Counted from the stretch's first letter, positions 32,348 to 43,745 are shown. The stretch is 43,745 bases of DNA from Candidatus Kapaibacterium sp. (GCA_017882165.1 JADGPZ010000007.1:1-43745), one strand, 5' to 3'. Made by a program: numbers and translations. Notes: generated from the sequence alone by a model not told the origin.

Positions 32348-33031
32348 TTAGTGGAATTTGAGTGTAAAGATACCGGGCCGCTTTTCGTCAATCGAGCGGA
32401 GCACGGTCGTCACTTTGCCTAAGATCTGAAAGTCCATGTCTGGCGAGATCCGGATTGGTTTGTACAGTTCGTTGGCCGGCTCGAGTGAGTAGCGGCCGTC
32501 CTTGCTTTTGCGGAAGGTTTTGACCGTCGCCGCATCTTCCAAACGGGCCACGACAATGTCGCCATCGTCAGCCGTTGGTTGCTGCCGGACGATGACGAGG
32601 TCACCATCCAGAATGCCCTTGTTCTTCATGCTCTCACCCTTGACACGAAGACCGAAGACCTTTCGGCTCAGGTCCATCGGCTTGAAGGCGAGCCAGCCTT
32701 CGACGTTCTCGATTGCGAGAATCGGCTCGCCGGCCGTGACGCGGCCAATGATCGGGATGGCGTTCGAATGCCGCTCGCCGCCGACCATGACGGATGGTCG
32801 AGCGACCATGATCGCACGCGAAAGCCCCGGACCACCGCGCATGAGATAGCCTTTCTTCAGCAGCGCGTCGAGGTGCTTGCGCACGCCGAACGTCGAACTG
32901 ACACCGAGAAATTCGGTGATTTCCAAAATCGAGGGCGGATAGCCCGAGATTTCGAGGTACTCTTCGATGTAATCCAGCACTTTATGCTGCTGAGGCGGTA
33001 GTTGATCTCGATCTTTTACGACTTTTGCCAT
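32348..33031 (-). CDS. lexA: LexA repressor
   Basis: 227 residues. The N-terminal winged helix (LPPQQHKVLDYIEEYLEISGYPPSILEITEFLGVSS, split by normal turns) is followed by the self-cleavage site at Ala100-Gly101 (VTAGEPI), the catalytic Ser134 (KGESMKNKGI) and Lys171 (AATVKTFRK), so all autoproteolysis elements are present. It represses SOS genes until RecA filaments trigger cleavage. A long palindrome lies 23-65 bp upstream of its start, the expected place for autoregulation. Confidence 0.95.
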   Translation of the reverse strand: MAKVVKDRDQLPPQQHKVLDYIEEYLEISGYPPSILEITEFLGVSSTFGVRKHLDALLKKGYLMRGGPGLSRAIMVARPSVMVGGERHSNAIPIIGRVTAGEPILAIENVEGWLAFKPMDLSRKVFGLRVKGESMKNKGILDGDLVIVRQQPTADDGDIVVARLEDAATVKTFRKSKDGRYSLEPANELYKPIRISPDMDFQILGKVTTVLRSIDEKRPGIFTLKFH

Positions 33032-33376: not shown

Positions 33377-35125
33377 ATGGCTGACATCTTCATCTCCTAC
33401 TCCTCGAAAGACTGCGCACAGGCGGAGCAACTGACCGAGTTGCTCGCGTCGGCGGGGCTATCGGTGTGGATCGATAAATCGGGAATCGACCTCGCCACGA
33501 GTTGGTCCCGAGAGATCGTGCAGGCGATCGATGGCTGCAAAGCGTTCGTGGTGTTGCTGTCCACGTCGTCCATCGAGTCCATCAATGTCCAGAAAGAGGT
33601 TTCCCTGGCCGCCGAGAAGCGGAAGAAGATTCTGCCGCTCGACTTGGAGCCGGTCACCCTCAGCGAAGAGCTGCAGTACCACCTCGCTGGCATTCAGCGC
33701 GCGCCGATGACGAACATCGACGCCGTTATCCGCTCGCTCGGGAAGCTGGGACTGGAAGCTACCTCGGCTCCAACGCTGAAGCTCGTCAAGGAAACTGATG
33801 GCCGCAAGAGCTTGATGATCGTCCCGTTTGAAGATCTCTCGCCGACCGGCGATAACCAGTGGTTTGCCGATGGTCTTGCGAGTGAGTTGATCTCGGCACT
33901 CTCGAATGTGAAGGCACTCCGTGTTACGGACGCGCAGACCACGAAGGACTTCAAGCGGTATCAGGGCACCCTCCCAAACTACGCCAAAGAGATGGGCATC
34001 CGCTATTTCGTGCAAGGTGACGTTCGGAAGTTCGGGGACAACATCAAGATCACTTCGCGGCTGCTCGATATCGAAACCGGCGACCACCTCTGGCAGGACT
34101 CGATGAAGGGGACAATGGATGACATCTTCGATATTCAGGAGAAGGTAGCGGAGAAAGTTGTCGAGGGGCTGAAAATTCATCTTGCCAGTGATGAGAAGAA
34201 GAAACTCGCCGAGCGCGGTACTGAGAATGCCGAGGCGTATGAACTATTTATGAAGGCGAGCGAGTATTTTGCTCGCCAGACGAAGGAGGGCATCCAGCTT
34301 GCCGTTCAACTCCTGACCGAAGCGATCCGTCTCGATCCTGGCTATGCGCGGGCGTATCAGGTAAAGGCAACCGCACTCGCATCGCTTTATCGCGCGTACG
34401 ACCGGACACCCGCCCTGCTGGATGAAGCGGAAACGCTCTGCAAGGAAGCGCTCCGTATCAAGCCTGATCTGTTCGCGGTCTATAATCCTCTCTCGATGAT
34501 CTATCTGCACCGGGGTCAGCTTGCCGAGGCGGAAGAGGTGGCAAAGGAATTCATCCGGAAAGACCCGCAGAATTTCGGAAGTCATTTCACGCTCGGATTT
34601 TTCTATGACGGAACCGACCAACCTTCCAACGCGATCGCTCCGTATGAGGAAGCGGTCCGTCTGAAGCCGGATCATCTCGCGAGCTTGTTTAATCTTGTGG
34701 TGAACTGCGATGCCGCCGGAGAACGAGAGAAATGCGGACACTGGGCGCGGGTCGCGCTTCCGCACATCGAGCGTCTTCTCAAGCTCCATCCCGATGATGA
34801 AGGCATGCGTGTGCAGCATGCGAACCTGCTCCTCTGGAGCGGCAGAACCGGCGATGGTCATGTCGCGGCGATGAAGCTTACGAATCTGAAGGATGGCAGT
34901 TCACTCTACAACACGGCCTGCATCTTCGGCAAGCTCGGCGACCCATCGGAAGCGATCCGGACATTTCGCAAAGCGATCGAGGCGGGATTTAGAAGTATTC
35001 GCCATCTGAAGGGATTTCTGACCGATGAGAATGAGGGCATTCTCGCGCTTCAAGGCACGCCGGAATACGAGGAAGTGAAGCGGATGGTGGAGGAGATCGA
35101 AATGGAGGCATCTGCCCATGGCTGA
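33377..35125 (+). CDS. TIR + TolB-like + TPR protein, copy 1
   Basis: Residues 1-125 are a TIR domain (MADIFISYSSKD; SVWIDKSGI; SIESINVQKEVSLA with candidate catalytic Glu74; ILPLDL). Residues about 143-270 form a TolB-like/FlgO-like domain (SLMIVPFEDLSP, QWFADGLASELISALSNVKALRV, GIRYFVQGDVRKFGDNIKITSRLLDIETGDHLWQD), the module that follows the cyclase domain in many adenylate cyclase-TPR proteins. About 290-575 is a series of TPR-like repeats (LDPGYARAYQVKATAL, AEAEEVAKEFIRKDP). TIR domains of bacteria commonly cleave NAD+ and act in antiviral defence; activity here is inferred. No signal peptide. The next copy overlaps it by 8 bases. Divergent from lexA. Confidence 0.85.
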   Translation: MADIFISYSSKDCAQAEQLTELLASAGLSVWIDKSGIDLATSWSREIVQAIDGCKAFVVLLSTSSIESINVQKEVSLAAEKRKKILPLDLEPVTLSEELQYHLAGIQRAPMTNIDAVIRSLGKLGLEATSAPTLKLVKETDGRKSLMIVPFEDLSPTGDNQWFADGLASELISALSNVKALRVTDAQTTKDFKRYQGTLPNYAKEMGIRYFVQGDVRKFGDNIKITSRLLDIETGDHLWQDSMKGTMDDIFDIQEKVAEKVVEGLKIHLASDEKKKLAERGTENAEAYELFMKASEYFARQTKEGIQLAVQLLTEAIRLDPGYARAYQVKATALASLYRAYDRTPALLDEAETLCKEALRIKPDLFAVYNPLSMIYLHRGQLAEAEEVAKEFIRKDPQNFGSHFTLGFFYDGTDQPSNAIAPYEEAVRLKPDHLASLFNLVVNCDAAGEREKCGHWARVALPHIERLLKLHPDDEGMRVQHANLLLWSGRTGDGHVAAMKLTNLKDGSSLYNTACIFGKLGDPSEAIRTFRKAIEAGFRSIRHLKGFLTDENEGILALQGTPEYEEVKRMVEEIEMEASAHG

Positions 35126-36827
35126 CATCTTCATTTCCTACTCCTCAAAAGACCGCGAGCAGGCGGAGCAACTGACCGAGTTGCTCGGCTCGGCGGGCCT
35201 ATCTGTCTGGATTGATAGGAGCGGGATTGTGGGTGCCGAACAATGGGCAACGGAGATCGTTGAGGGAATCCGCGCTTGCAATACGTTCATTCTACTGCTA
35301 TCGCCGAACAGCATCCAATCGGAGAATGTGTTGAGAGAGCTATCTCTCGCATCTGAAAAACGGAAGCGCGTGCTGCCGGTAGATCTTGAGCCGACCGTTC
35401 TTCCTTCCTCTTTTGAATATCCGCTCGCGGGATTGCAACGCGTGGCGATCTCGGATTTCGACAGCATCCTGCGTGCGCACCACCACGGTGTCGAGCGGGT
35501 GAGCCAGAAGGACGCTCGCAAGAGTCTGATGATTCTTCCGTTTGAAGACCTCTCTCCCGGACAGGATAACGGCTGGTTCGCCGATGGTATTGTGAGCGAG
35601 ATGATTTCGGCCTTGTCGCACGTCAAGGCTCTCCGGCTTGCCGATAATCAGGCAACGAAAGAGTTCAAGAAGTACACCGGCCAGCTCACGACGTACGCTC
35701 GTGAAATGAACATCCGCTATTTCGTTCAGGGAGACGTTCGCAAGTTCGGGGAGAACATTAAGATCACTTCACGCTTACTCGACATTGAAACCGGCGATCA
35801 CCTCTGGCAGGATACGCTCAAAGGCACAATGCAGGACATCTTTGATATTCAGGAGCAGGTTGCCGTGAAGGTGGTCGATGGTCTGAATATCATATTGACG
35901 AAGGAGGAGAAATCGAAGCTCGAAGAGCGCGGCACGGAGAATGCCGAGGCGTATGAACTGCACATGAAGGCGAGAGAATATTTTTATCGCCAAACGAAAG
36001 AGGGCTTCCAGCTTGCCGTTCAACTCATTACCGAAGCGATTAAGCTTGATCCCGGATATGCGCGGGCGTATGACTTCAAGGCGACTGCGCTCACGTCGCT
36101 CTACCGCAGCTACGACCGGACACCCGCCCTCTTAGATGAAGCGGAATCGCTCTGCAAGGAAGCGCTAAGGCTGATGCCCGATCTGTTCGCGATCTATTAC
36201 CCTCTCTCGCAGATCTACATGCACCGAGGTCAACTTGCTGAAGCGGAGGAGATGGCAAAGGAATTCATCCGGAATGACCCGCAGAATTTAAGCAGTCATT
36301 TCGCGCTCGCCTTTTTCTATAGTGGTACCGGCCAACCCGCCAAAGCGATCGGTCCTTATGAGGAATCGATCCGTCTGAAGCCGGATTATCTCGTGGGCTT
36401 GTTGAATCTTGTGATTGCCTGCGACGATGCCGGAGAACGAGAGAAATGCGCATACTGGGCGATGTTCGCGATTCCCTGTTGCGAGCGTCATCTCAAACTG
36501 CATCCTGATGATGAAGGCATGGGTGTACAGCATGCAGCCATGCTCCTCTTGAGCGGCAGAACGGAGGACGCATACGCGGCGGCGATGAAGCTTACGAATC
36601 TGAAGGATGGCAGTTCACTCTACAACACTGCCTACCTCTTTGGCCAGCTCGGCGACCACTCGGAAGCGCTTCGGACACTCCGCAAAGCGATCGAAGCGGG
36701 CTATAGAAATATTCGCCACCTGAAGGAGTTTCTGGCCGATGAGAGCGTTCTCGCGCTTCAAGGCACGCCGGAATACGAGGAGGTGAAGCGGATGGTGGAG
36801 AAGATAGAGGCAACGAGTAGCACGTAA
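35118..36827 (+). CDS. TIR + TolB-like + TPR protein, copy 2
   Basis: 569 residues with the same three-part layout as copy 1. The TIR part shares the first 35 residues, but then differs (SGIVGAEQWATEIVEGIRACNTFILLLSPNSIQSENVLRELSLA, Glu74 conserved), and the linker 95-140 is unrelated (FEYPLAGLQRVAISDFDSILRAHHHG). The TolB-like and TPR parts are nearly the same as in copy 1, at protein and DNA level. The ATG at 35118 lies inside the end of copy 1, so the two are translated together, possibly as partners. This copy is closer to copy 4 than to copy 1. Confidence 0.85.
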   Translation: MADIFISYSSKDREQAEQLTELLGSAGLSVWIDRSGIVGAEQWATEIVEGIRACNTFILLLSPNSIQSENVLRELSLASEKRKRVLPVDLEPTVLPSSFEYPLAGLQRVAISDFDSILRAHHHGVERVSQKDARKSLMILPFEDLSPGQDNGWFADGIVSEMISALSHVKALRLADNQATKEFKKYTGQLTTYAREMNIRYFVQGDVRKFGENIKITSRLLDIETGDHLWQDTLKGTMQDIFDIQEQVAVKVVDGLNIILTKEEKSKLEERGTENAEAYELHMKAREYFYRQTKEGFQLAVQLITEAIKLDPGYARAYDFKATALTSLYRSYDRTPALLDEAESLCKEALRLMPDLFAIYYPLSQIYMHRGQLAEAEEMAKEFIRNDPQNLSSHFALAFFYSGTGQPAKAIGPYEESIRLKPDYLVGLLNLVIACDDAGEREKCAYWAMFAIPCCERHLKLHPDDEGMGVQHAAMLLLSGRTEDAYAAAMKLTNLKDGSSLYNTAYLFGQLGDHSEALRTLRKAIEAGYRNIRHLKEFLADESVLALQGTPEYEEVKRMVEKIEATSST

Positions 36828-36854
36828 CGAGTAGAGCCCCAACCCGCTCGTTAC
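36824..36854. terminator. Hairpin between convergent genes
   Basis: Arms GTAACGAG and CTCGTTAC with a 15-base loop, starting one base before the copy 2 TAA and ending 12 bases before the convergent aminotransferase stop. No T-run; a stop-and-stabilise role is likely. Confidence 0.4.
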
Positions 36855-36865
36855 CCCTTACTCAT

Positions 36866-38047
36866 TCACTCGTTACCCAGAGCGATCCTGCCCGCACCGG
36901 CAAGATCGACCAACGCTTCCTTCAGAGCATCGAAGTCCGAGCGATCGTTATACACTTGCGACGAGGCCCTGACACATAGCTTCCCGTTCGCAATCATCGC
37001 AGGGACTTCGATTCTATACTCATCAAAAAGAACGTCATGCAAATTGAGAGCACTCTCCTCCGTTGCGTCAGGATCACCCGGGAGCGGTATCGTACATAGA
37101 TTGGCAAGCATCTCTACAGGAGCTGCAAGCGATACGCCGAGCGCTGCACTAATATCGCTCCGCGCGTCCAGGAGCATCCTTTGGGTGTACTCGCGGCTTC
37201 CTTGGGCGGCGAGCGTTCTGTGAAACTCGATTCCTGCCGGGACGCTCAGGAAGGCAGTCGGGTCCAATGTTCCTGTCCAGCCAAATTCCGTTTGATATCC
37301 GCCACCCAGGAAATGGGAGATCACTGTTGGGTGGATCTTCGATTGATGCTTCTTATCCACCCAGAGAAGTGCCGCGCCCTTTGGCGCATACAGCCACTTA
37401 TGACAATTCCCAACGTAGTAGTCGGCACCAAGTGTGTTGAGATCGAGCTCGATCTGCCCTGGCGCATGCGCGCCATCGATGAGCACCGGAATGCCACGCT
37501 CTTTAAAGAGTGCAATGATCTGCTTGAAGGGGAAGATGACACCAGTCGAGCTGGTGATGTGGTCGATCACGGCAAAGGTCGTCCTCGGTGTGATCGCGCG
37601 AGCGATGGCGTCTGTCACCTCGTCGGCATCTGCGATCGGGAAAGGGAGCGCAGCATCGACCACATTTGCACCGCTGAGCCCCGCAACATACACCATCGTT
37701 TGCCGGACGGCGCGGTAGGCCTGGCTCGATGTCAGCAGTTCGTCGCCCGGCTTGAAAGTCGGAAGAAGGGAGCGAAGAACAGCATTCGCGCCATCGGTCG
37801 CGTTTTGTACGAATACCAGATCTTCCGTGCGCGCACCGACGAAGGTTGCAAGTTCGGCTCTTGCCGCATCGAGATGCCCTGGCAATTCGCGCGTCATGAA
37901 GCGCACAGGTTCAGCTTCCATACGCGATTGCCACTCGCGCTGCACGGCAAGCACCGAGCGCGGACACGCCCCGAAGGAACCGTGATTTAGAAAAATTACG
38001 TCTTCATCTAAAAACCACTCACTGCGGATCGCTTTGCCAAATGTCAT
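36866..38047 (-). CDS. PLP-dependent aminotransferase class V (isopenicillin-N epimerase-like)
   Basis: 393 residues. FLNHGSFGACPRSV (19-32), the cofactor-site blocks VLIDGAHAPGQI (Asp191) and GNCHKWLYAPKG (Schiff-base Lys217) and FGWTGTLDPTAFLSVP place it in the class V group that includes isopenicillin-N epimerase-like and cysteine-desulfurase-like enzymes. The substrate cannot be told. It runs against the TIR genes and splits their array, so it is probably not part of that system. Confidence 0.88.
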   Translation of the reverse strand: MTFGKAIRSEWFLDEDVIFLNHGSFGACPRSVLAVQREWQSRMEAEPVRFMTRELPGHLDAARAELATFVGARTEDLVFVQNATDGANAVLRSLLPTFKPGDELLTSSQAYRAVRQTMVYVAGLSGANVVDAALPFPIADADEVTDAIARAITPRTTFAVIDHITSSTGVIFPFKQIIALFKERGIPVLIDGAHAPGQIELDLNTLGADYYVGNCHKWLYAPKGAALLWVDKKHQSKIHPTVISHFLGGGYQTEFGWTGTLDPTAFLSVPAGIEFHRTLAAQGSREYTQRMLLDARSDISAALGVSLAAPVEMLANLCTIPLPGDPDATEESALNLHDVLFDEYRIEVPAMIANGKLCVRASSQVYNDRSDFDALKEALVDLAGAGRIALGNE

Positions 38048-38109
38048 ATTCGATCCTGTAACGCAAAGTTGCTTGGCGATGAATCCCCGGATGCAGCTCA
38101 GTGTCCTTT

Positions 38110-38182
38110 GTAGCCGCGACTTTTAAGCCATGGCGAATGTTCATCGTCGTAAATTCCACCGTGATCTAAAGGTCACGGCTAC
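38110..38182. repeat. REP/BIME-like inverted pair directly before the TIR remnant
   Basis: The outer ends GTAGCCGCGACTTTT and AAAGGTCACGGCTAC are inverted matches (13 of 15), and the right unit folds as CCGTGATC-TAAA-GGTCACGG with the same TAAA loop as the unit at 7230-7247. It ends five bases before the TIR remnant starts. Confidence 0.6.
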
Positions 38183-38187
38183 GAACA

Positions 38188-38352
38188 ATGTCTGACATCT
38201 TCATCTCCTACTCCTCGAAGGACCGCGCGCAGGCGGAGCAACTGACGGAGGTGCTCGCCTCGGCGTGGCTATCGGTGTGGATTGATAAGTCCGGCGTGGA
38301 ATGCGATCGGCCTGCTATTGGGCGAGGCATCATAAGTCGGCACTCTATGTAA
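38188..38352 (+). pseudogene. TIR gene remnant, copy 3
   Basis: The first 38 codons (MSDIFISYSSKDRAQAEQLT...LSVWIDKSGV) are almost the same as the other TIR copies. After VECDRP the sequence diverges completely and stops at 38350-38352 (54 codons in all). The TolB-like and TPR parts are absent. It looks like a broken copy left after recombination; expression as a 54-residue peptide cannot be excluded. Confidence 0.75.
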
Positions 38353-38424
38353 ATCTTTCTCTGGCACTTTCTTCCTTCGTGTGCGGGTTGTACCGACCAA
38401 GCTTGCGATAGTCTTTTGGCATCA

Positions 38425-40452
38425 ATGATTTGCAGATCCGTCATCCTCGGAGTAGCGTTGCTGTGCAGCCTGACATCGGGTTTGGCCGCTCAATTGCGCA
38501 TCGTGTCTCCGAATGGCGGCGAGTCGTTGCGTGTCGGTTCCAAGGTGACCATTATCTGGACCGGCGTCCTTCCGACCGATGTCATCACACTTGAGTACAG
38601 CACGGATAATGGCGCAAGCTGGAACCCGATTACCAACACCGCGAAAGGACTTCAATATACCTGGCGGAACATTCCGAACACAGTCAGCGCGACATGCTTG
38701 CTGCGTGCTACATTCCAAACCGCGACTCCCGCGACACTCCGACTGTTCGGCACCGGCAATTTTGGCAACGCCGATTTTAGCTCCGACGGCAATCTTGTGA
38801 TCAGTGGAAGTGCAGATGGGAACGCGTACATTTGGGATTCTCATTCGGCGCAGTTAATCCACCAGTATCGTACAGAGAGCGGTGCCGGGATTACCCTCAA
38901 GGCACTGAATTCCTGGGGTACGTTCAGCCCGGATATGAAGACCTTCGCAACGGTCTCGCCAACGCCCGACGGACCTGCAAATGGGAACGTGGCGCGCATC
39001 TTTGACGTGGCGACAGGTGCAAAGCTCCACGAATGGACGTTGCTGGACCCATCGAATCTCGCCTCTGCTACAGGACACTGTCAGTTCCACCCCGATGGCA
39101 CTCGCCTCGCGGTGACAGGAGAGGATTCCATTCGAGTATTCGACGTTGCCTCGGAAGCTGTTGTCTCGAAGCTTGCCGGGTTTGTTCGAGAGGATGCATT
39201 TTACACGGAGCATAGTATCGCAAACTATCTGGATTGGAAGCCGGATGGCTCGGATATTATAGCCGGAATCGCAATCAAGAGCGATAGCATCCCCACTTAC
39301 ATTCGCGCGAGCAGTGCGACCGGCGATACGCTTCAGAGTTATCGCCTGAAGTCGAGTTATCCGTATGTGTCCGTCAACACTGGGGTGCATTATTCGCCGG
39401 ATGGCAGCTTGTTTATCGCCTCGACGGAGGATACGTCGGTCCGCGTATGGAACGTGGCGACAGGAGCGATTCTTTTCACGATTCGGCCTGGCCTCCGGGA
39501 ATCAGTCGATGCTGTGTTTTCGCATGACGGCAAAACGATTGCAACGCTCGGTTACGATTCGCTGGGTTTCAATTCGTATAATGTCAAGTTATGGAATGCT
39601 TCCGATGGCTCGTTCATCCGATGGGTGGGTGCCCTCGGGTTTGGATCTGGGACAATCGAGTTTAGTCCCGACGATGCGCGTATCCTTGTCTCTTCTTCCG
39701 GTAACAATGTTATTTTCCAAGTAGCTCAGACCGGTTTAGAAAGTGATATGTCCGATGGCGTGTGGTCCATCGTTCCGAATACTGGCCAGAATGTTGTCGT
39801 GTACACGCCTGATGCGAGCGCGAATGTTAACGATCTCATAGATATTTCGGTCTTCATCGACGATCCCGGAGGAGCGGTTGCCGCGGGCGCCTCGAGTGTT
39901 TCGTTCGATCTCCATTTCAACGAAACGATGCTGGAGCCTATTGGGACAACTCCGAAAGGGACCGTTACAGGATCGGATCGTGTCCTCCATTTTAATTTGC
40001 CGATCGTTGCGACCGACACCGTGCTCACGATGTTGCACTTCCGCGTTGCACTGGGTGATGATTCCGTGACCAGCCTTGCGGTCGCAAAGCCACTTACCAA
40101 TTCGCTTGTTGTCACTGCGAGCAATAACGACGGCACATTCAAGTTGCTGAACGTTTGTACCGCAGGCGGCCCTCGACTCCTGAATCCCGATGGCGTCGTC
40201 GCCATGAGTGTCCCGAATAATCCGGTGCACGACGCCATTCAGGTCAAAGTGAACCTTATCGAGGATGGCCATACCAGCCTCACACTCTTTGATGCATGTG
40301 GACGCGCGGCTGCAACAATCGTCGATGATTACCTGACGCATGGTACACAATTGTTCTCCGTTCCTGCATCAGGCATAGGCTCTGGTGTGTATTATGTCAT
40401 ATTGCAGACGCCGAATAACCGTTTGATGGCACCTGTGGAGGTCGAGAAGTGA
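38425..40452 (+). CDS. Secreted WD40-repeat protein with Ig-like and type IX-like domains
   Basis: From the ATG at 38425: signal peptide (MICRSVILGVALLCSLTSGLAAQ); an Ig-like module (IVSPNGGESLRVGSKVTIIWTG...LEYSTDNGASW); about seven WD40-like repeats (SADGNAYIWD, EDSIRVFDVASE, DTSVRVWNVATG, YNVKLWNASDG); a cohesin-like segment (DISVFIDDPGGAVAAGASSVSFDLHFNETML); and a C-terminal sorting-like tail (LTLFDACGRAAATIVDDYLTHGTQLFSVPASGIGSGVYYVILQT). The tail predicts export by the type IX system. Its stop overlaps the start of the following OmpA-family gene (ATGA), so the two are made together. Such pairs are typical of FCB bacteria. Role unknown, probably cell-surface. Confidence 0.82.
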   Translation: MICRSVILGVALLCSLTSGLAAQLRIVSPNGGESLRVGSKVTIIWTGVLPTDVITLEYSTDNGASWNPITNTAKGLQYTWRNIPNTVSATCLLRATFQTATPATLRLFGTGNFGNADFSSDGNLVISGSADGNAYIWDSHSAQLIHQYRTESGAGITLKALNSWGTFSPDMKTFATVSPTPDGPANGNVARIFDVATGAKLHEWTLLDPSNLASATGHCQFHPDGTRLAVTGEDSIRVFDVASEAVVSKLAGFVREDAFYTEHSIANYLDWKPDGSDIIAGIAIKSDSIPTYIRASSATGDTLQSYRLKSSYPYVSVNTGVHYSPDGSLFIASTEDTSVRVWNVATGAILFTIRPGLRESVDAVFSHDGKTIATLGYDSLGFNSYNVKLWNASDGSFIRWVGALGFGSGTIEFSPDDARILVSSSGNNVIFQVAQTGLESDMSDGVWSIVPNTGQNVVVYTPDASANVNDLIDISVFIDDPGGAVAAGASSVSFDLHFNETMLEPIGTTPKGTVTGSDRVLHFNLPIVATDTVLTMLHFRVALGDDSVTSLAVAKPLTNSLVVTASNNDGTFKLLNVCTAGGPRLLNPDGVVAMSVPNNPVHDAIQVKVNLIEDGHTSLTLFDACGRAAATIVDDYLTHGTQLFSVPASGIGSGVYYVILQTPNNRLMAPVEVEK

Positions 40453-42569
40453 AGTTTGTCCTCGTCCTTGTCCTGAGTCTGTGCTGCATCGCAGTTCACG
40501 CTCAGGACTCACTCCGCGCACGGTATGGTATTGAAGGCGGCGTTTCGGCGAACATGCACGTCGCCGATTTTCGGGCGCTACCCGGCGTACCGAATTGCTG
40601 TCCACAGTTTACGACTGGCTCTGGCACCGGACCGTTCGTCGGCGTTTACGCCGCATATCCGATTGCCGATCGATTCCTGTTCTCTGCGGGACTCAACTAC
40701 GTCGATCAAAGTGCAACCTTGCAGAACGATGAACGCATCGCGATCATCGTGAATGGGATCGGACAAAACGGCACCGACCGGCATACCGTGACTGCTACGC
40801 TTAGGAGTATTGGACTTGAACCTACGGTTGCGTATCGACTCTTCAACGCGGTGTTCCTTGACGCGGGCGCACGCGTGGGGTATACGATGACGAAGCAGTA
40901 CTCACAGGACGAACGAATTGTCAGTGGGGCCGGGACATTTCTCGATTCGCTTGGCAATGACTCGCGCAGCCAAATCCGCAATCAGAACTCGGGTAGTATT
41001 CCGCAAGCGGCCTCGCTCAGTGCGCAGCTTCGTTTCGGCGCTCGCTATGAACTTCCGATGAACGCCAAGCATAGTCTGTTCCTCGTACCGAGTGTGATGT
41101 ATGCCGCATCGTTAACTAATGTATCCCAAGGGATCGACTGGAAGCCGAATGGGCTGGAGATGGGTATCGGCATTACTTTTTCACCCGTTCCTGAGAGGCA
41201 CCGGTTTGTTTTCGATACTATAATATTCAGGGATACCGTATCAAGTCTCGACAGAAGTATTCCAAACCGATTGCTGGTTCGTTCTTCGATCGATCGGAGG
41301 GATACCTCAGTCATTTCGGAGGATGTGACGACGTCAACAACGCTCGTCCGCGAGCACTATCTCCTGCGGATACCTGATCCGCATGATGTCAACGGGAAGG
41401 TGGCAGCCGTTGGGTTGGACGACGATGGAAACGAGCACCCGATCGCCTCGCTTCGCATCGAAGACTTTCTCTCGATGAACGCGAGCCCATTGCTTGGGTA
41501 TGTCTTTTTTGGCGAAGGGGACAGCGTGATCCCTTCTCGATATCATCTACTCGATCATGCGGCGAGTTCGAAGTTCCAACTGCGGTCGCTGTTCTCGCTG
41601 GATGCCATGGGGATCCACCACAACGCGCTTAACATTATTGCCGTAAGACTAAAGGAACATCCTCATGCGCATCTGACAATCACAGGTTGCAACGCAAATG
41701 TGGGGGTCGAGTCCGCCAACACGGTGCTTTCAGAAGTGCGGGCGAGGGCCGTCTACGAGTATTTTCACAGCGTGTGGAATATTCCGCAATCGCAGCTTTC
41801 GGTACTCGCGCGAGACTTGCCCGAGAAGCCGTCCAATCCGAAGACTCCGATCGGGCAGGAGGAGAACCGTCGCGTCGAGCTCACGTGCGATGAACCAGAA
41901 GTCCTCGATGTCTTTCTTGCCAATGACACAACGAGAATACCGGATCCGCCACAATTGCGGATCAAACTGCACACAGGATCGAGCGTCGGGGTGACATCCT
42001 GGAAACTCGAAGTCAACCAGGATGGAAAGATGATTCATCACGCGTTGGGTTTGGGCGAGGCGCCCTCGTCGGATGATTGGGACCTCACGCACGACTATGA
42101 GGCCATTCCACACTACGGGACACCGCTTATGTTTGTACTTACGACAACGAATTCCAAAGGCGATGTTGCAAGGGACACCACCGTGCTTCCCACCGAGATT
42201 ACCACGGTGCAACAAAAGCGAGCGCGACATACGGGCGATGTGATAATCGATCGCTACAATCTCGTGCTCTTCGATTTTGCCCGGTCTGGTATGTTGCCGG
42301 CGCACGAGAGAATTCTACAGATGGTCCGCTCCCGGCTTAAACCGACCTCCTCGATCCTCCTGGAAGGTTACACCGATCGAAGTGGCACCTCTGCCGGGAA
42401 TCTGCGTCTCGCGACAGCCCGCGCAACCGCGTCGGCAAAGTCATTGGGCCGAGCGGACGCCGCTGTCAAAGGAATTGGCGATACTCGCCTGCTCTACCCG
42501 AACGAGACACCGGAGGGTCGATTCCTTTGCAGAACCGTTCAAGTTACTGTCAGGACTCCAGTCGAGTAG
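40449..42569 (+). CDS. OmpA-family outer-membrane protein with N-terminal barrel
   Basis: 706 residues: signal peptide (MKFVLVLVLSLCCIAVHAQ), a beta-barrel-like region to about 250, a middle region, a first OmpA-like domain (around 400-495: LTITGCNANVGVESANTVLSEVRARAVYEYF) and a second at the end (VLFDFARSGMLPAHERILQMV, LEGYTDRSGTSAGNLRLATARATA). OmpA-like domains bind peptidoglycan and anchor the outer membrane. Two domains in one protein, coupled to a secreted WD40 protein, suggest a surface complex. Translational coupling with the upstream gene is seen (40449-40452). Confidence 0.82.
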   Translation: MKFVLVLVLSLCCIAVHAQDSLRARYGIEGGVSANMHVADFRALPGVPNCCPQFTTGSGTGPFVGVYAAYPIADRFLFSAGLNYVDQSATLQNDERIAIIVNGIGQNGTDRHTVTATLRSIGLEPTVAYRLFNAVFLDAGARVGYTMTKQYSQDERIVSGAGTFLDSLGNDSRSQIRNQNSGSIPQAASLSAQLRFGARYELPMNAKHSLFLVPSVMYAASLTNVSQGIDWKPNGLEMGIGITFSPVPERHRFVFDTIIFRDTVSSLDRSIPNRLLVRSSIDRRDTSVISEDVTTSTTLVREHYLLRIPDPHDVNGKVAAVGLDDDGNEHPIASLRIEDFLSMNASPLLGYVFFGEGDSVIPSRYHLLDHAASSKFQLRSLFSLDAMGIHHNALNIIAVRLKEHPHAHLTITGCNANVGVESANTVLSEVRARAVYEYFHSVWNIPQSQLSVLARDLPEKPSNPKTPIGQEENRRVELTCDEPEVLDVFLANDTTRIPDPPQLRIKLHTGSSVGVTSWKLEVNQDGKMIHHALGLGEAPSSDDWDLTHDYEAIPHYGTPLMFVLTTTNSKGDVARDTTVLPTEITTVQQKRARHTGDVIIDRYNLVLFDFARSGMLPAHERILQMVRSRLKPTSSILLEGYTDRSGTSAGNLRLATARATASAKSLGRADAAVKGIGDTRLLYPNETPEGRFLCRTVQVTVRTPVE

Positions 42570-42686
42570 AGTTCGACTGCTCTTTCGTAATCCAGTAGCG
42601 AATGGATGGCAAGCAACATGCTCATTCTGGTTCGTTGGCAACGAATCCTCGCTCCTGATTCGTTACTCTTCGCGCCGTTACTTCCT

Positions 42687-43745
42687 ATGGCCGACATTTT
42701 CATCTCCTATTCCTCGAAAGACCGCGCGCAGGCGGAGCAACTAACCGAACTGCTCGACTCGGCGGGACCCTCCTGCTGGATCGACAAGTCCGGCATTCAC
42801 GGCGCTGAGCAGTGGGCGACGGAGATCGTCGAGGGGATTCGGGGCATGCACCACGTTCATCATCCTACTTTCGCAGAATAGCTTTGCCTCGGACAATGTC
42901 CTGCGAGAGTTGTCGCTCGCATCGGAAAAGCGGAAGCGGGTCCTGCCCGTTGATCTGGAGCCATCGCTGCTTCCGTCGTCATTCGAATACCCGCTTGCCG
43001 GATTGCAGCGCGTCGCGATCACGGATTTCGATAGCATCCTTCGTGCGCACCACCACGGCGTTGAGCGAGTGGGCGCGAAGGACATCCGGAAGAGCCTGAT
43101 GATCCTCCCGTTCGAGGATATCTCTCCGGCGGGAGTCAACCAGTGGTTCGCCGATGGGATTGTGAGTGAGATGATCTCCGCGCTTACTCATGTCAAGGCC
43201 CTTCGCGTTGCTGATACGCAGGCGACGAAGGACTTCAAACGCTATCAAGGGACACTCCCGACGTATGCTCGTGAAATGAACATCCGCTACTTCGTGCAGG
43301 GTGACGTGCTGAAGTTCGGGGATAACATCAAGGTCAATTCTCGCTTACTCGACATCGAAACGGGCGATCACCTCTGGCAGGACACGCTGAAAGGCACGAT
43401 GGAGGATATCTTCGATATTCAGGAGCAGGTTGCCACGAAGGTGGTTGGTGGTTTGGACATCATCTTAACAAGGGAAGAAAAATCGAAGCTCGAAGAACGC
43501 GGCACCGAGAATGCGGAAGCGTATGAACTGTATATGAAGGCGTGGGAGTATAATACTCGTCAGACGAAGGAGGGCTTCCAGTTCGCCGTTCAACTCCTTA
43601 CAGAAGCGATTTGTCTCGATCCCAGCTTTGCGCGGGCGTATCAGGTTAAAGCGACCGCGCTCGCAATGCTCTACCGCGCTTACGACCGGACACCCGCCCT
43701 GCTGGATGAAGCGGAAGCGCTCTCGAAGGAAGCGCTCCGGCTGAA
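42687..43745 (+). pseudogene. TIR + TolB-like + TPR gene, copy 4, frameshifted and cut by the window end
   Basis: The first frame reads MADIFISYSSKDRAQAEQLT...CWIDKSGIHGAEQWATEIVEGIR and is lost at a GGGG run (42841-42844): one extra G leads to a stop at 42879-42881. In the next frame the protein continues without a stop to the window end (TFIILLSQNSFASDNVLRELSLASEKRKRVLPVDLEP..., then the TolB-like domain and first TPR units). The sequence after the shift is well conserved, so the change is recent or is a homopolymer sequencing error. It resembles copy 2 most, including the FEYPLAGLQRVAI linker. Confidence 0.8.

What the first reader, a model, noticed from the sequence alone, without database searches (positions are those of the whole stretch)
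33377..43745. Array of TIR + TolB-like + TPR genes: a possible undescribed defence or signalling family
Two tandem intact genes (overlapping by 8 bases), one remnant and one frameshifted copy share a TIR domain with conserved Glu74, a TolB-like/FlgO-like domain and TPR units. The TolB-TPR part is known behind adenylate cyclase or winged-helix domains. With a TIR in the first position, the protein could couple a peptide/protein sensor (TPR) to NAD+ cleavage. The TIR part varies after residue 35 and the linker 95-140 differs between copies, while the rest is nearly constant, a pattern expected of diversifying sensor-effector families. What is seen: domains, copies, variation. Defence or NADase activity is inference.
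Basis: partly seen in the sequence, partly recalled or inferred. Interest (0 to 1): 0.85.

Follow-up and report, generated by a model that had tools for sequence, protein, structure and literature searches.

The report
Shuffled TIR–CadC-type sensor gene arrays
This bacterial lineage carries a large, fast-changing family of proteins, often in tandem gene arrays, that join a TIR domain with the hallmarks of an NAD+-destroying enzyme to an interchangeable sensor; this is what an innate-immunity receptor family would look like, although neither the enzyme activity nor a role against phages has been tested.

Summary
The window holds two intact, overlapping TIR–TolB-like–TPR genes, a TIR remnant and a frameshifted copy cut by the contig end. 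They belong to a family present in all 13 sampled genomes of this taxonomic family, with arrays of up to 11 tandem genes (G003). Within the class, TIR+TolB was seen only there (12 of 13 genomes, against 0 of 232 others). Elsewhere the same TolB–TPR module sits mostly behind Ser/Thr kinases, also cyclases or winged helices. The model matches SARM1/SPARTA-type TIRs and, over both remaining domains, the CadC sensor. E74 is invariant (72/72).

Family-wide the TIR is the most conserved part and the TPR the most variable, most of all at its ligand-facing positions. No region has dN/dS above 1. TIR, TolB and TPR have conflicting trees (mosaic genes). Non-orthologous copies occupy the same slot beside lexA in related genomes.

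Best reading: a modular sensor–effector family in which a TIR NADase is switched by a CadC-type TolB–TPR sensor, probably for intracellular immunity. NADase activity is inferred and defence is unproven; neighbours are not defence genes. New variant of a known kind.

The parts
33377..35125 (+). Copy A: TIR–TolB-like–TPR protein, 582 aa
   Evidence: Complete ORF; TIR_2 8.9e-21 and TPR families; 72% identical to B
33377..33730 (+). Copy A, TIR domain (aa 1-118), catalytic-type E74, D33, W31
   Evidence: Pfam TIR_2; PDB profile alignment to Cat1/TIR-1/SARM1
33803..34207 (+). Copy A, TolB/FlgO-like domain (about aa 143-277)
   Evidence: Family alignment; FlgO/TolB_N hits in relatives
34208..35122 (+). 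Copy A, TPR superhelix (about aa 278-582)
   Evidence: Pfam TPRs; model helices in copy B
35118..36827 (+). Copy B: TIR–TolB-like–TPR protein, 569 aa, start overlaps the stop of A by 8 bases (ATGGCTGA)
   Evidence: ORF; TIR_2 2.3e-23; AlphaFold2 model pLDDT 91.4
35118..35471 (+). Copy B, TIR domain (aa 1-118)
   Evidence: TIR-only model pLDDT 91.9; Foldseek to SARM1, SPARTA, AbTir
35517..36824 (+). Copy B, CadC-type sensor module: TolB-like (aa 134-268) plus TPR (269-569)
   Evidence: Foldseek CadC periplasmic domain 3ly7, E 1.6e-7, TM 0.64 on the target, 303 columns
38188..38304 (+). Remnant: TIR codons 1-39 only; G001 has an intact TIR gene at the corresponding slot behind the aminotransferase
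   Evidence: tblastn-type hit 1.2e-12; synteny with L145
42687..43745 (+). Copy C: frameshifted (about 42846-42860) and cut by the contig end inside the TPR part
   Evidence: Two frames with TIR and TolB–TPR matches
32348..33031 (-). lexA, divergent neighbour; linked to a TIR gene of this family in 7 genomes, but the linked TIR genes are mostly not orthologous
   Evidence: Pfam LexA/S24; synteny
36866..38047 (-). Class V aminotransferase, syntenic marker (87% identical in G001) flanking the TIR slot

Best explanation
It is a lineage-expanded family of modular intracellular sensor–effector proteins. SHOWN (computed): an N-terminal TIR domain with an invariant catalytic-type Glu and conserved BB-loop residues; a flexible linker; a CadC-type sensor module made of a TolB/FlgO-like domain and a TPR superhelix; tandem arrays with overlapping stop/start codons; exchange of TIR, TolB and TPR segments between copies; rapid turnover at fixed chromosomal slots. 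INFERRED: a ligand bound mainly in the TPR concave face (different in each copy) rearranges or clusters the TolB–TPR module, brings TIR domains together into a composite active site, and switches on NAD+ cleavage, either depleting NAD+ (growth arrest or abortive infection) or making an ADP-ribose messenger. The TIR stands where related proteins carry a kinase, cyclase or DNA-binding output, so it is most likely an enzymatic output domain. The most likely biological role is recognition of varied invaders (phage or other non-self); that last step is the least certain.
For: TIR fold and NADase-type site: Pfam, PDB profile hits to Cat1 1.7e-10 and TIR-1/SARM1 about 1e-8 with E74 on their catalytic Glu, TIR-only model matching SARM1, SPARTA and AbTir, E74, D33, W31 and W43 invariant in 72/72; D33 aligns with Cat1 D33, needed for full Cat1 activity (PMC12162218). 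Sensor: CadC 3ly7 match over both sensor domains. Output swap: the same TolB–TPR behind a kinase (L041, L044, L048), cyclase (L043), Trans_reg_C (L060). Expansion: up to 11 tandem genes in G003. TPR most variable, concave positions 3.24 against 2.80 bits, p=0.0003. Mosaicism: nearest neighbours by TIR and by TPR agree in 11/72; cross-domain likelihood losses 527-1757 against 83-199 for odd/even column controls. Turnover: beside 92%-identical lexA, the TIR genes of G000 and G001 share 48/53/26% (TIR/TolB/TPR); copy A is nearest to a gene in another genus (78%, LexA 64%) and only 51% to sister G001. Precedent for clustering-activated TIR NADases: SpbK (PMC12847820).
Against: No neighbour enrichment for defence genes in the own family (107 proteins) or in Gammaproteobacteria (69 proteins); neighbours include housekeeping genes (lexA, mnmG/gidA, lptF, alanine racemase). 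No dN/dS above 1. Related kinase–TolB–TPR arrays suggest the chassis may serve general signalling. No assay data. No sign of mobility in this window: uniform GC, no phage record covering both domains.
Confidence: 0.55

Rival explanations
1. General signal transduction: each copy senses a nutrient, metabolite or envelope signal through a CadC-like module and answers with a TIR-made nucleotide messenger; expansion reflects a complex soil/sediment lifestyle, not immunity.
For: The same sensor module works in CadC-type regulators and is fused to kinases and cyclases in related bacteria, also in arrays; neighbours are not defence genes; four members carry a transmembrane helix between TIR and TolB, the CadC topology.
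Against: Copies next to the same lexA are non-orthologous, genes are mosaic, ligand-facing TPR positions are the most variable and histories conflict with the species relation: unusual for housekeeping sensing.
Confidence: 0.3
2. The TIR is a non-enzymatic assembly (scaffold) domain and TolB–TPR binds partner proteins; the family builds signalling platforms.
For: Many TIRs act as scaffolds; TPR and FlgO-like domains are binding or oligomerising domains (general knowledge; FlgO ring structures 9yfg).
Against: Glu74 is invariant in 72/72 while the sequence around it varies, and the closest solved relatives by profile are NAD+ hydrolases.
Confidence: 0.1
3. Thoeris-like split system: TIR copies are messenger producers acting on a separate shared effector encoded elsewhere.
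For: Weak ThsB_TIR similarity (1.3e-4; PADLOC ThsB up to 1.4e-8); several TIR producers per locus would fit.
Against: No STALD (ThsA-type SLOG) domain found in 12 genomes of the lineage, although the control did not ring either, so absence is not proven; no conserved co-encoded effector gene.
Confidence: 0.15
4. Neutral repeat family: tandem duplication and gene conversion of a non-essential gene, many copies decaying, no present function.
For: Remnants and a frameshifted copy in the window; partial copies elsewhere, some at contig ends.
Against: Purifying selection (dN/dS 0.05-0.45) in all domains and 72 near-full-length copies with an invariant TIR core.
Confidence: 0.05

Closest known systems
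CadC periplasmic sensor domain (PDB 3ly7) and CadC-type regulators
   Same: TolB-like alpha/beta subdomain followed by a TPR-like helical domain; Foldseek match over 303 columns, E 1.6e-7; NCBIfam CadC weak hit 8.7e-10; a minority of TIR members also have a transmembrane helix between output and sensor
   Different: Output is a TIR, not a winged helix; most members, including window copies A and B, have no transmembrane helix; longer TPR; only 12% identity
TIR NADases SARM1/TIR-1, Cat1, AbTir, SPARTA TIR-APAZ, SpbK
   Same: TIR fold, Glu at the catalytic position, D33 as in Cat1
   Different: Sensor is TolB–TPR, not CARF, APAZ, SAM/ARM or a helical bundle; activity not tested
Kinase–TolB–TPR and cyclase–TolB–TPR proteins of Ignavibacteria, Chloroflexi, Rhizobia
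   Same: Homologous TolB–TPR module, also in tandem arrays
   Different: Ser/Thr kinase or guanylate/adenylate cyclase in place of TIR
Gammaproteobacterial TIR–TolB–TPR proteins (L030, L032-L039, e.g. Thioalkalivibrio sp. XN8)
   Same: Same full architecture, 31-33% identity over the length, catalytic Glu present
   Different: One to three copies per locus seen, no large arrays; other phylum
TPR protein with N-terminal TIR match in PDB 9m0n/9umd (824 aa)
   Same: TIR profile hit 4e-4 in a protein deposited as tetratricopeptide repeat protein
   Different: No TolB hit reported; its paper was not found in the library, so only a lead

Membership tests
Bacterial TIR_2 domain proteins | TIR_2 profile match above curated cut-off | tested here: met
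   75.1 and 83.4 bits against cut-off 28
TIR NADases | TIR fold with Glu at the catalytic position | tested here: met
TIR NADases | NAD+ cleavage that depends on that Glu | not testable with these tools
   needs an assay
CadC-type TolB–TPR sensor module | TolB/FlgO-like alpha/beta domain followed by a TPR-like helical domain, superposable on CadC 3ly7 | tested here: met
   TM 0.64 on target; FlgO 6/24, TolB_N 2/24; CadC 8.7e-10
CadC-type TolB–TPR sensor module | Transmembrane helix placing the sensor outside | tested here: not met
   Absent in A, B and most members; present in 4 of 72
Thoeris (ThsB) | ThsA-type effector (STALD/SLOG) in the genome or next door | tested here: inconclusive
   0 of 12 genomes but the control was silent; no conserved partner gene
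Thoeris (ThsB) | ThsB model as best and strong hit | tested here: not met
   TIR_2 far better than ThsB_TIR; PADLOC ThsB only weak, TIR region only
TIR-NLR / STAND receptors | NTPase (NB-ARC/NACHT) domain between TIR and repeats | tested here: not met
   No NTPase domain in Pfam, NCBIfam or PADLOC scans; the middle domain is TolB/FlgO-like
Anti-phage defence systems (genomic criterion) | Enrichment of known defence genes nearby | tested here: not met
   PADLOC on 107 and 69 neighbours: scattered generic hits only
Anti-phage defence systems (functional criterion) | Protection against phage | not testable with these tools
   needs a phage challenge

The most novel reading that the evidence does not exclude
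A bacterial receptor repertoire built like a combinatorial library: one conserved TIR NADase output joined to a TolB coupling domain and a shuffled, ligand-face-variable TPR sensor, kept in co-translated arrays of up to 11 genes and exchanged as cassettes at fixed chromosomal slots between related species, giving each genome a different set of intracellular non-self receptors.
Probability: 0.35. Interest if true: 0.82.

Novelty: new variant of a known kind. Interest (0 to 1): 0.62.

Why it matters
If the reading holds, this is an NTPase-free route to a diversified immune-receptor repertoire in bacteria: a CadC-type sensor chassis, otherwise found with transcription factors, kinases and cyclases, re-used to control a TIR enzyme and diversified by recombination between tandem copies. 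It gives a defined set of parts for asking how bacteria evolve new recognition specificities, and it could reveal what ligands cytosolic TolB–TPR modules bind, which is unknown for most of them.

Tried and rejected
1) SOS control through lexA: a conserved putative LexA operator (ATGCTKTSATGGGCACCTRC-like) lies in the lexA promoter of seven genomes, but it does not occur upstream of other TIR arrays. The adjacency is therefore kept as a landmark and slot, not as evidence of SOS control.

2) Positive selection: pairwise NG86 by domain shows dN/dS 0.05-0.45 and none above 1, except 1.16 in one 15-codon linker comparison that is too short to use. Rejected.

3) A site-specific recombination anchor at codon 35: within-genome excess similarity at the 5' end is only about 8-12% nt over the first 15 codons, with no sharp common edge.

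4) AU p-values as proof of mosaicism: they also reject odd/even-column controls, so only the size of the likelihood loss against controls is used.

5) Defence island: not found.

6) Thoeris partner: none found, but the control was silent.

7) Prophage or plasmid origin: no phage record covers both domains; among plasmids only one Novosphingobium record covers TIR+TolB, at 25% identity.

8) Literature: no paper found on the TIR–TolB–TPR architecture in the held library; absence there is not proof of absence.

Full report
WHAT IS THERE. The window is one whole contig (G000:C99) of a 3.46 Mb draft genome. Copy A (33377-35125) and copy B (35118-36827) are complete and overlap by 8 bases. The stop of A (TGA) lies inside the start of B (ATGGCTGAC), a layout that suggests translational coupling and recurs in other arrays of the family. 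A remnant of TIR codons 1-39 lies at 38188-38304. A third copy, frameshifted near 42850, begins at 42687 and is cut by the contig end. Other members in the same genome are on contigs C90, C30 and C1, with partial copies at the ends of C146 and C36. Several copies end at contig edges, so arrays are broken in the assembly and copy numbers are lower limits.

DOMAINS. Residues 1-118 are a TIR_2 domain. Residues 134-268 of B have no Pfam hit of their own, but relatives hit FlgO (6 of 24), FlgT_M (4) and TolB_N (2). Residues 269-569 are TPRs. An AlphaFold2 model from 67 family sequences is confident (pLDDT 91.4, pTM 0.70). Its sensor half matches the CadC periplasmic domain (3ly7: E 1.6e-7, TM 0.64 on the target, 303 columns). 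That is the one kind of match among the listed top hits that covers both the TolB-like and the helical part, the rest being TPR proteins (that it covers both parts is inferred from its length against the 322-residue target). A TIR-only model (pLDDT 91.9) matches SARM1, SPARTA TIR-APAZ and AbTir. A profile of the TIRs hits Cat1 (1.7e-10) and TIR-1/SARM1 (about 1e-8), with E74 on their catalytic Glu. Across 72 members F5, S7, Y8, W31, D33, W43, S68 and E74 are invariant; D33 aligns with Cat1 D33, whose mutation lowers Cat1 NADase activity (PMC12162218). NADase activity is therefore likely but not shown.

TOPOLOGY. Copies A and B and most members have no transmembrane segment. Four of 72 (G007_C5_1011642, G008_C106_21640, G001_C7_116064, G008_C74_29756) have a clear one, with preceding basic residues, between TIR and TolB. 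That gives them the CadC layout, output inside and sensor outside. Both kinds sit together in the arrays of G007 and G008.

DISTRIBUTION. Members occur in all 13 sampled genomes of the window's taxonomic family. Named relatives in the public collection are 'Ignavibacteriae bacterium palsa_1295', 'Ki2-D3_bin-1418', 'Candidatus Kapaibacterium sp. CRAIB_MAG116' and others. I collected 75 genes from them. G003:C5:7053-25016 holds 11 head-to-tail genes (the eighth is split between two fetched stretches), and G007 and G008 hold about six at one locus. A TIR+TolB profile finds both domains together in 12 of 13 genomes of the family (the 13th is 67% complete) and in none of 232 other genomes of the class. 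In a 396-genome sample of the phylum it is again seen only in this family. In the other families of the class the matches are to the TolB–TPR part alone, behind other N-termini. Where tested, these were Ser/Thr kinase (L041, L044, L048); outside the class I found guanylate cyclase (L043), winged helix (L060) and BTAD (L062), and some kinase versions are also in tandem. A full-length TIR–TolB–TPR form exists in Gammaproteobacteria (L030, L032-L039). The TIR thus occupies the output slot of a widely used sensor chassis.

For A against B the TIR after residue 35 and the linker do differ most, but synonymous sites there are saturated and dN/dS is low, while the TPR half is simply younger (pS 0.20-0.45). 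Across 72 members the TIR is the most conserved part (mean entropy mostly 1.2-1.6 bits) and the TPR the most variable (2.1-2.8). Within five TPR units the ligand-facing concave positions (2, 5, 9, 12, 13) are more variable than other exposed positions: 3.24 against 2.80 bits, permutation p=0.0003. The identity of those positions is general TPR knowledge; the result suggests that copies bind different ligands. No domain shows dN/dS above 1: TIR about 0.1-0.4, TolB 0.05-0.2, TPR mostly 0.22-0.45.

MOSAIC GENES AND TURNOVER. TIR, TolB and TPR segments have different histories. G008_C106_23477 and G001_C8_144975 share 86% of the TIR but 23% of the TPR. Adjacent genes G007_C5_1011642 and 1013467 share 75%, 32% and 16% (TIR, TolB, TPR). 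The nearest neighbour by TIR and by TPR agree for 11 of 72 genes. Likelihood losses when one domain is forced on another domain's tree are 527-1757, against 83-199 for odd/even columns of the same domain and 212 between the two halves of the TPR. AU p-values reject the controls too, so the argument rests on the size of the loss. In seven genomes a TIR gene of this family lies at or near lexA, but the seven genes are mostly not orthologous. Between G000 and G001 LexA is 92% and the flanking aminotransferase 87% identical, while the TIR genes next to lexA share 48/53/26%. Behind the aminotransferase G001 has an intact TIR gene where the window has only the remnant. Copy A is closest to a gene of another genus (78% identity; LexA 64%) and only 51% identical to the best gene of sister G001. 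These are signs of cassette replacement, loss and probably horizontal exchange.

WHAT DOES NOT SUPPORT DEFENCE. Neighbours are ordinary genes (LexA, MnmG, LptF, alanine racemase, secreted proteins with type IX sorting tails). PADLOC gives only scattered generic hits among 107 neighbours in the family and 69 in Gammaproteobacteria. GC content across the window is even. No ThsA-type partner was found, although that search had no positive control. A putative LexA operator exists only in the lexA promoter and not at other arrays, so SOS control is not supported.

MOST LIKELY MECHANISM. Ligand binding to the TPR concave face changes the arrangement of TolB–TPR modules, clusters the TIR domains into a composite active site and switches on NAD+ cleavage. 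Clustering-dependent NADase activity is established for other bacterial TIRs such as SpbK (PMC12847820) and Cat1 (PMC12162218). Co-translated copies might form mixed oligomers. A conserved effector, a diversified and shuffled sensor and rapid turnover at fixed sites argue for recognition of variable foreign ligands, with immunity the leading guess (about 0.55). General signalling remains a serious rival (0.3).

NOVELTY. The parts are known; the combination of a TIR output with a CadC-type TolB–TPR sensor, its expansion into arrays and its domain shuffling were not found described in the papers held. I class it as a new variant of a known kind.

Noticed in passing
L118:6053-19999 and L119:1-5172 (G003:C5:7053-25016): Eleven consecutive TIR–TolB–TPR genes on one strand, the longest array seen.
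   Followed up: partly
L122:5642-7471, L121:2640-4481, L147:6064-7884, L153:4756-6621: Subclade with a transmembrane helix between TIR and TolB, giving CadC topology, mixed with soluble copies in the arrays of G007 and G008.
   Followed up: partly
L041, L044, L046-L050, G108:C19, G135:C61: TolB–TPR proteins of Ignavibacteria and relatives also lie in tandem arrays; those tested carry a Ser/Thr kinase output. Their variation was not analysed.
   Followed up: partly
window:33031-33377 and the lexA upstream regions of L131, L139, L141, L145, L149, L154: Conserved element in the lexA promoter (TTGACT, TATATT, then an ATGC/GTGC-N8-GCAC palindrome followed by CTRC): a putative LexA operator of this lineage.
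   Followed up: partly
L120:15232-17115 and L122:12773-14599: Orthologous secreted protein with a C-terminal sorting-type tail, inserted inside the TIR arrays of two genera (G008, G007).
   Followed up: no
L145:10245-10625: Degenerate TIR start fused in frame to a type IX secretion-type C-terminal tail, apparently a pseudogene junction.
   Followed up: no
L038:533-4718: Thioalkalivibrio sp. XN8 carries two divergent TIR–TolB–TPR genes head to head plus a third 5 kb away.
   Followed up: no
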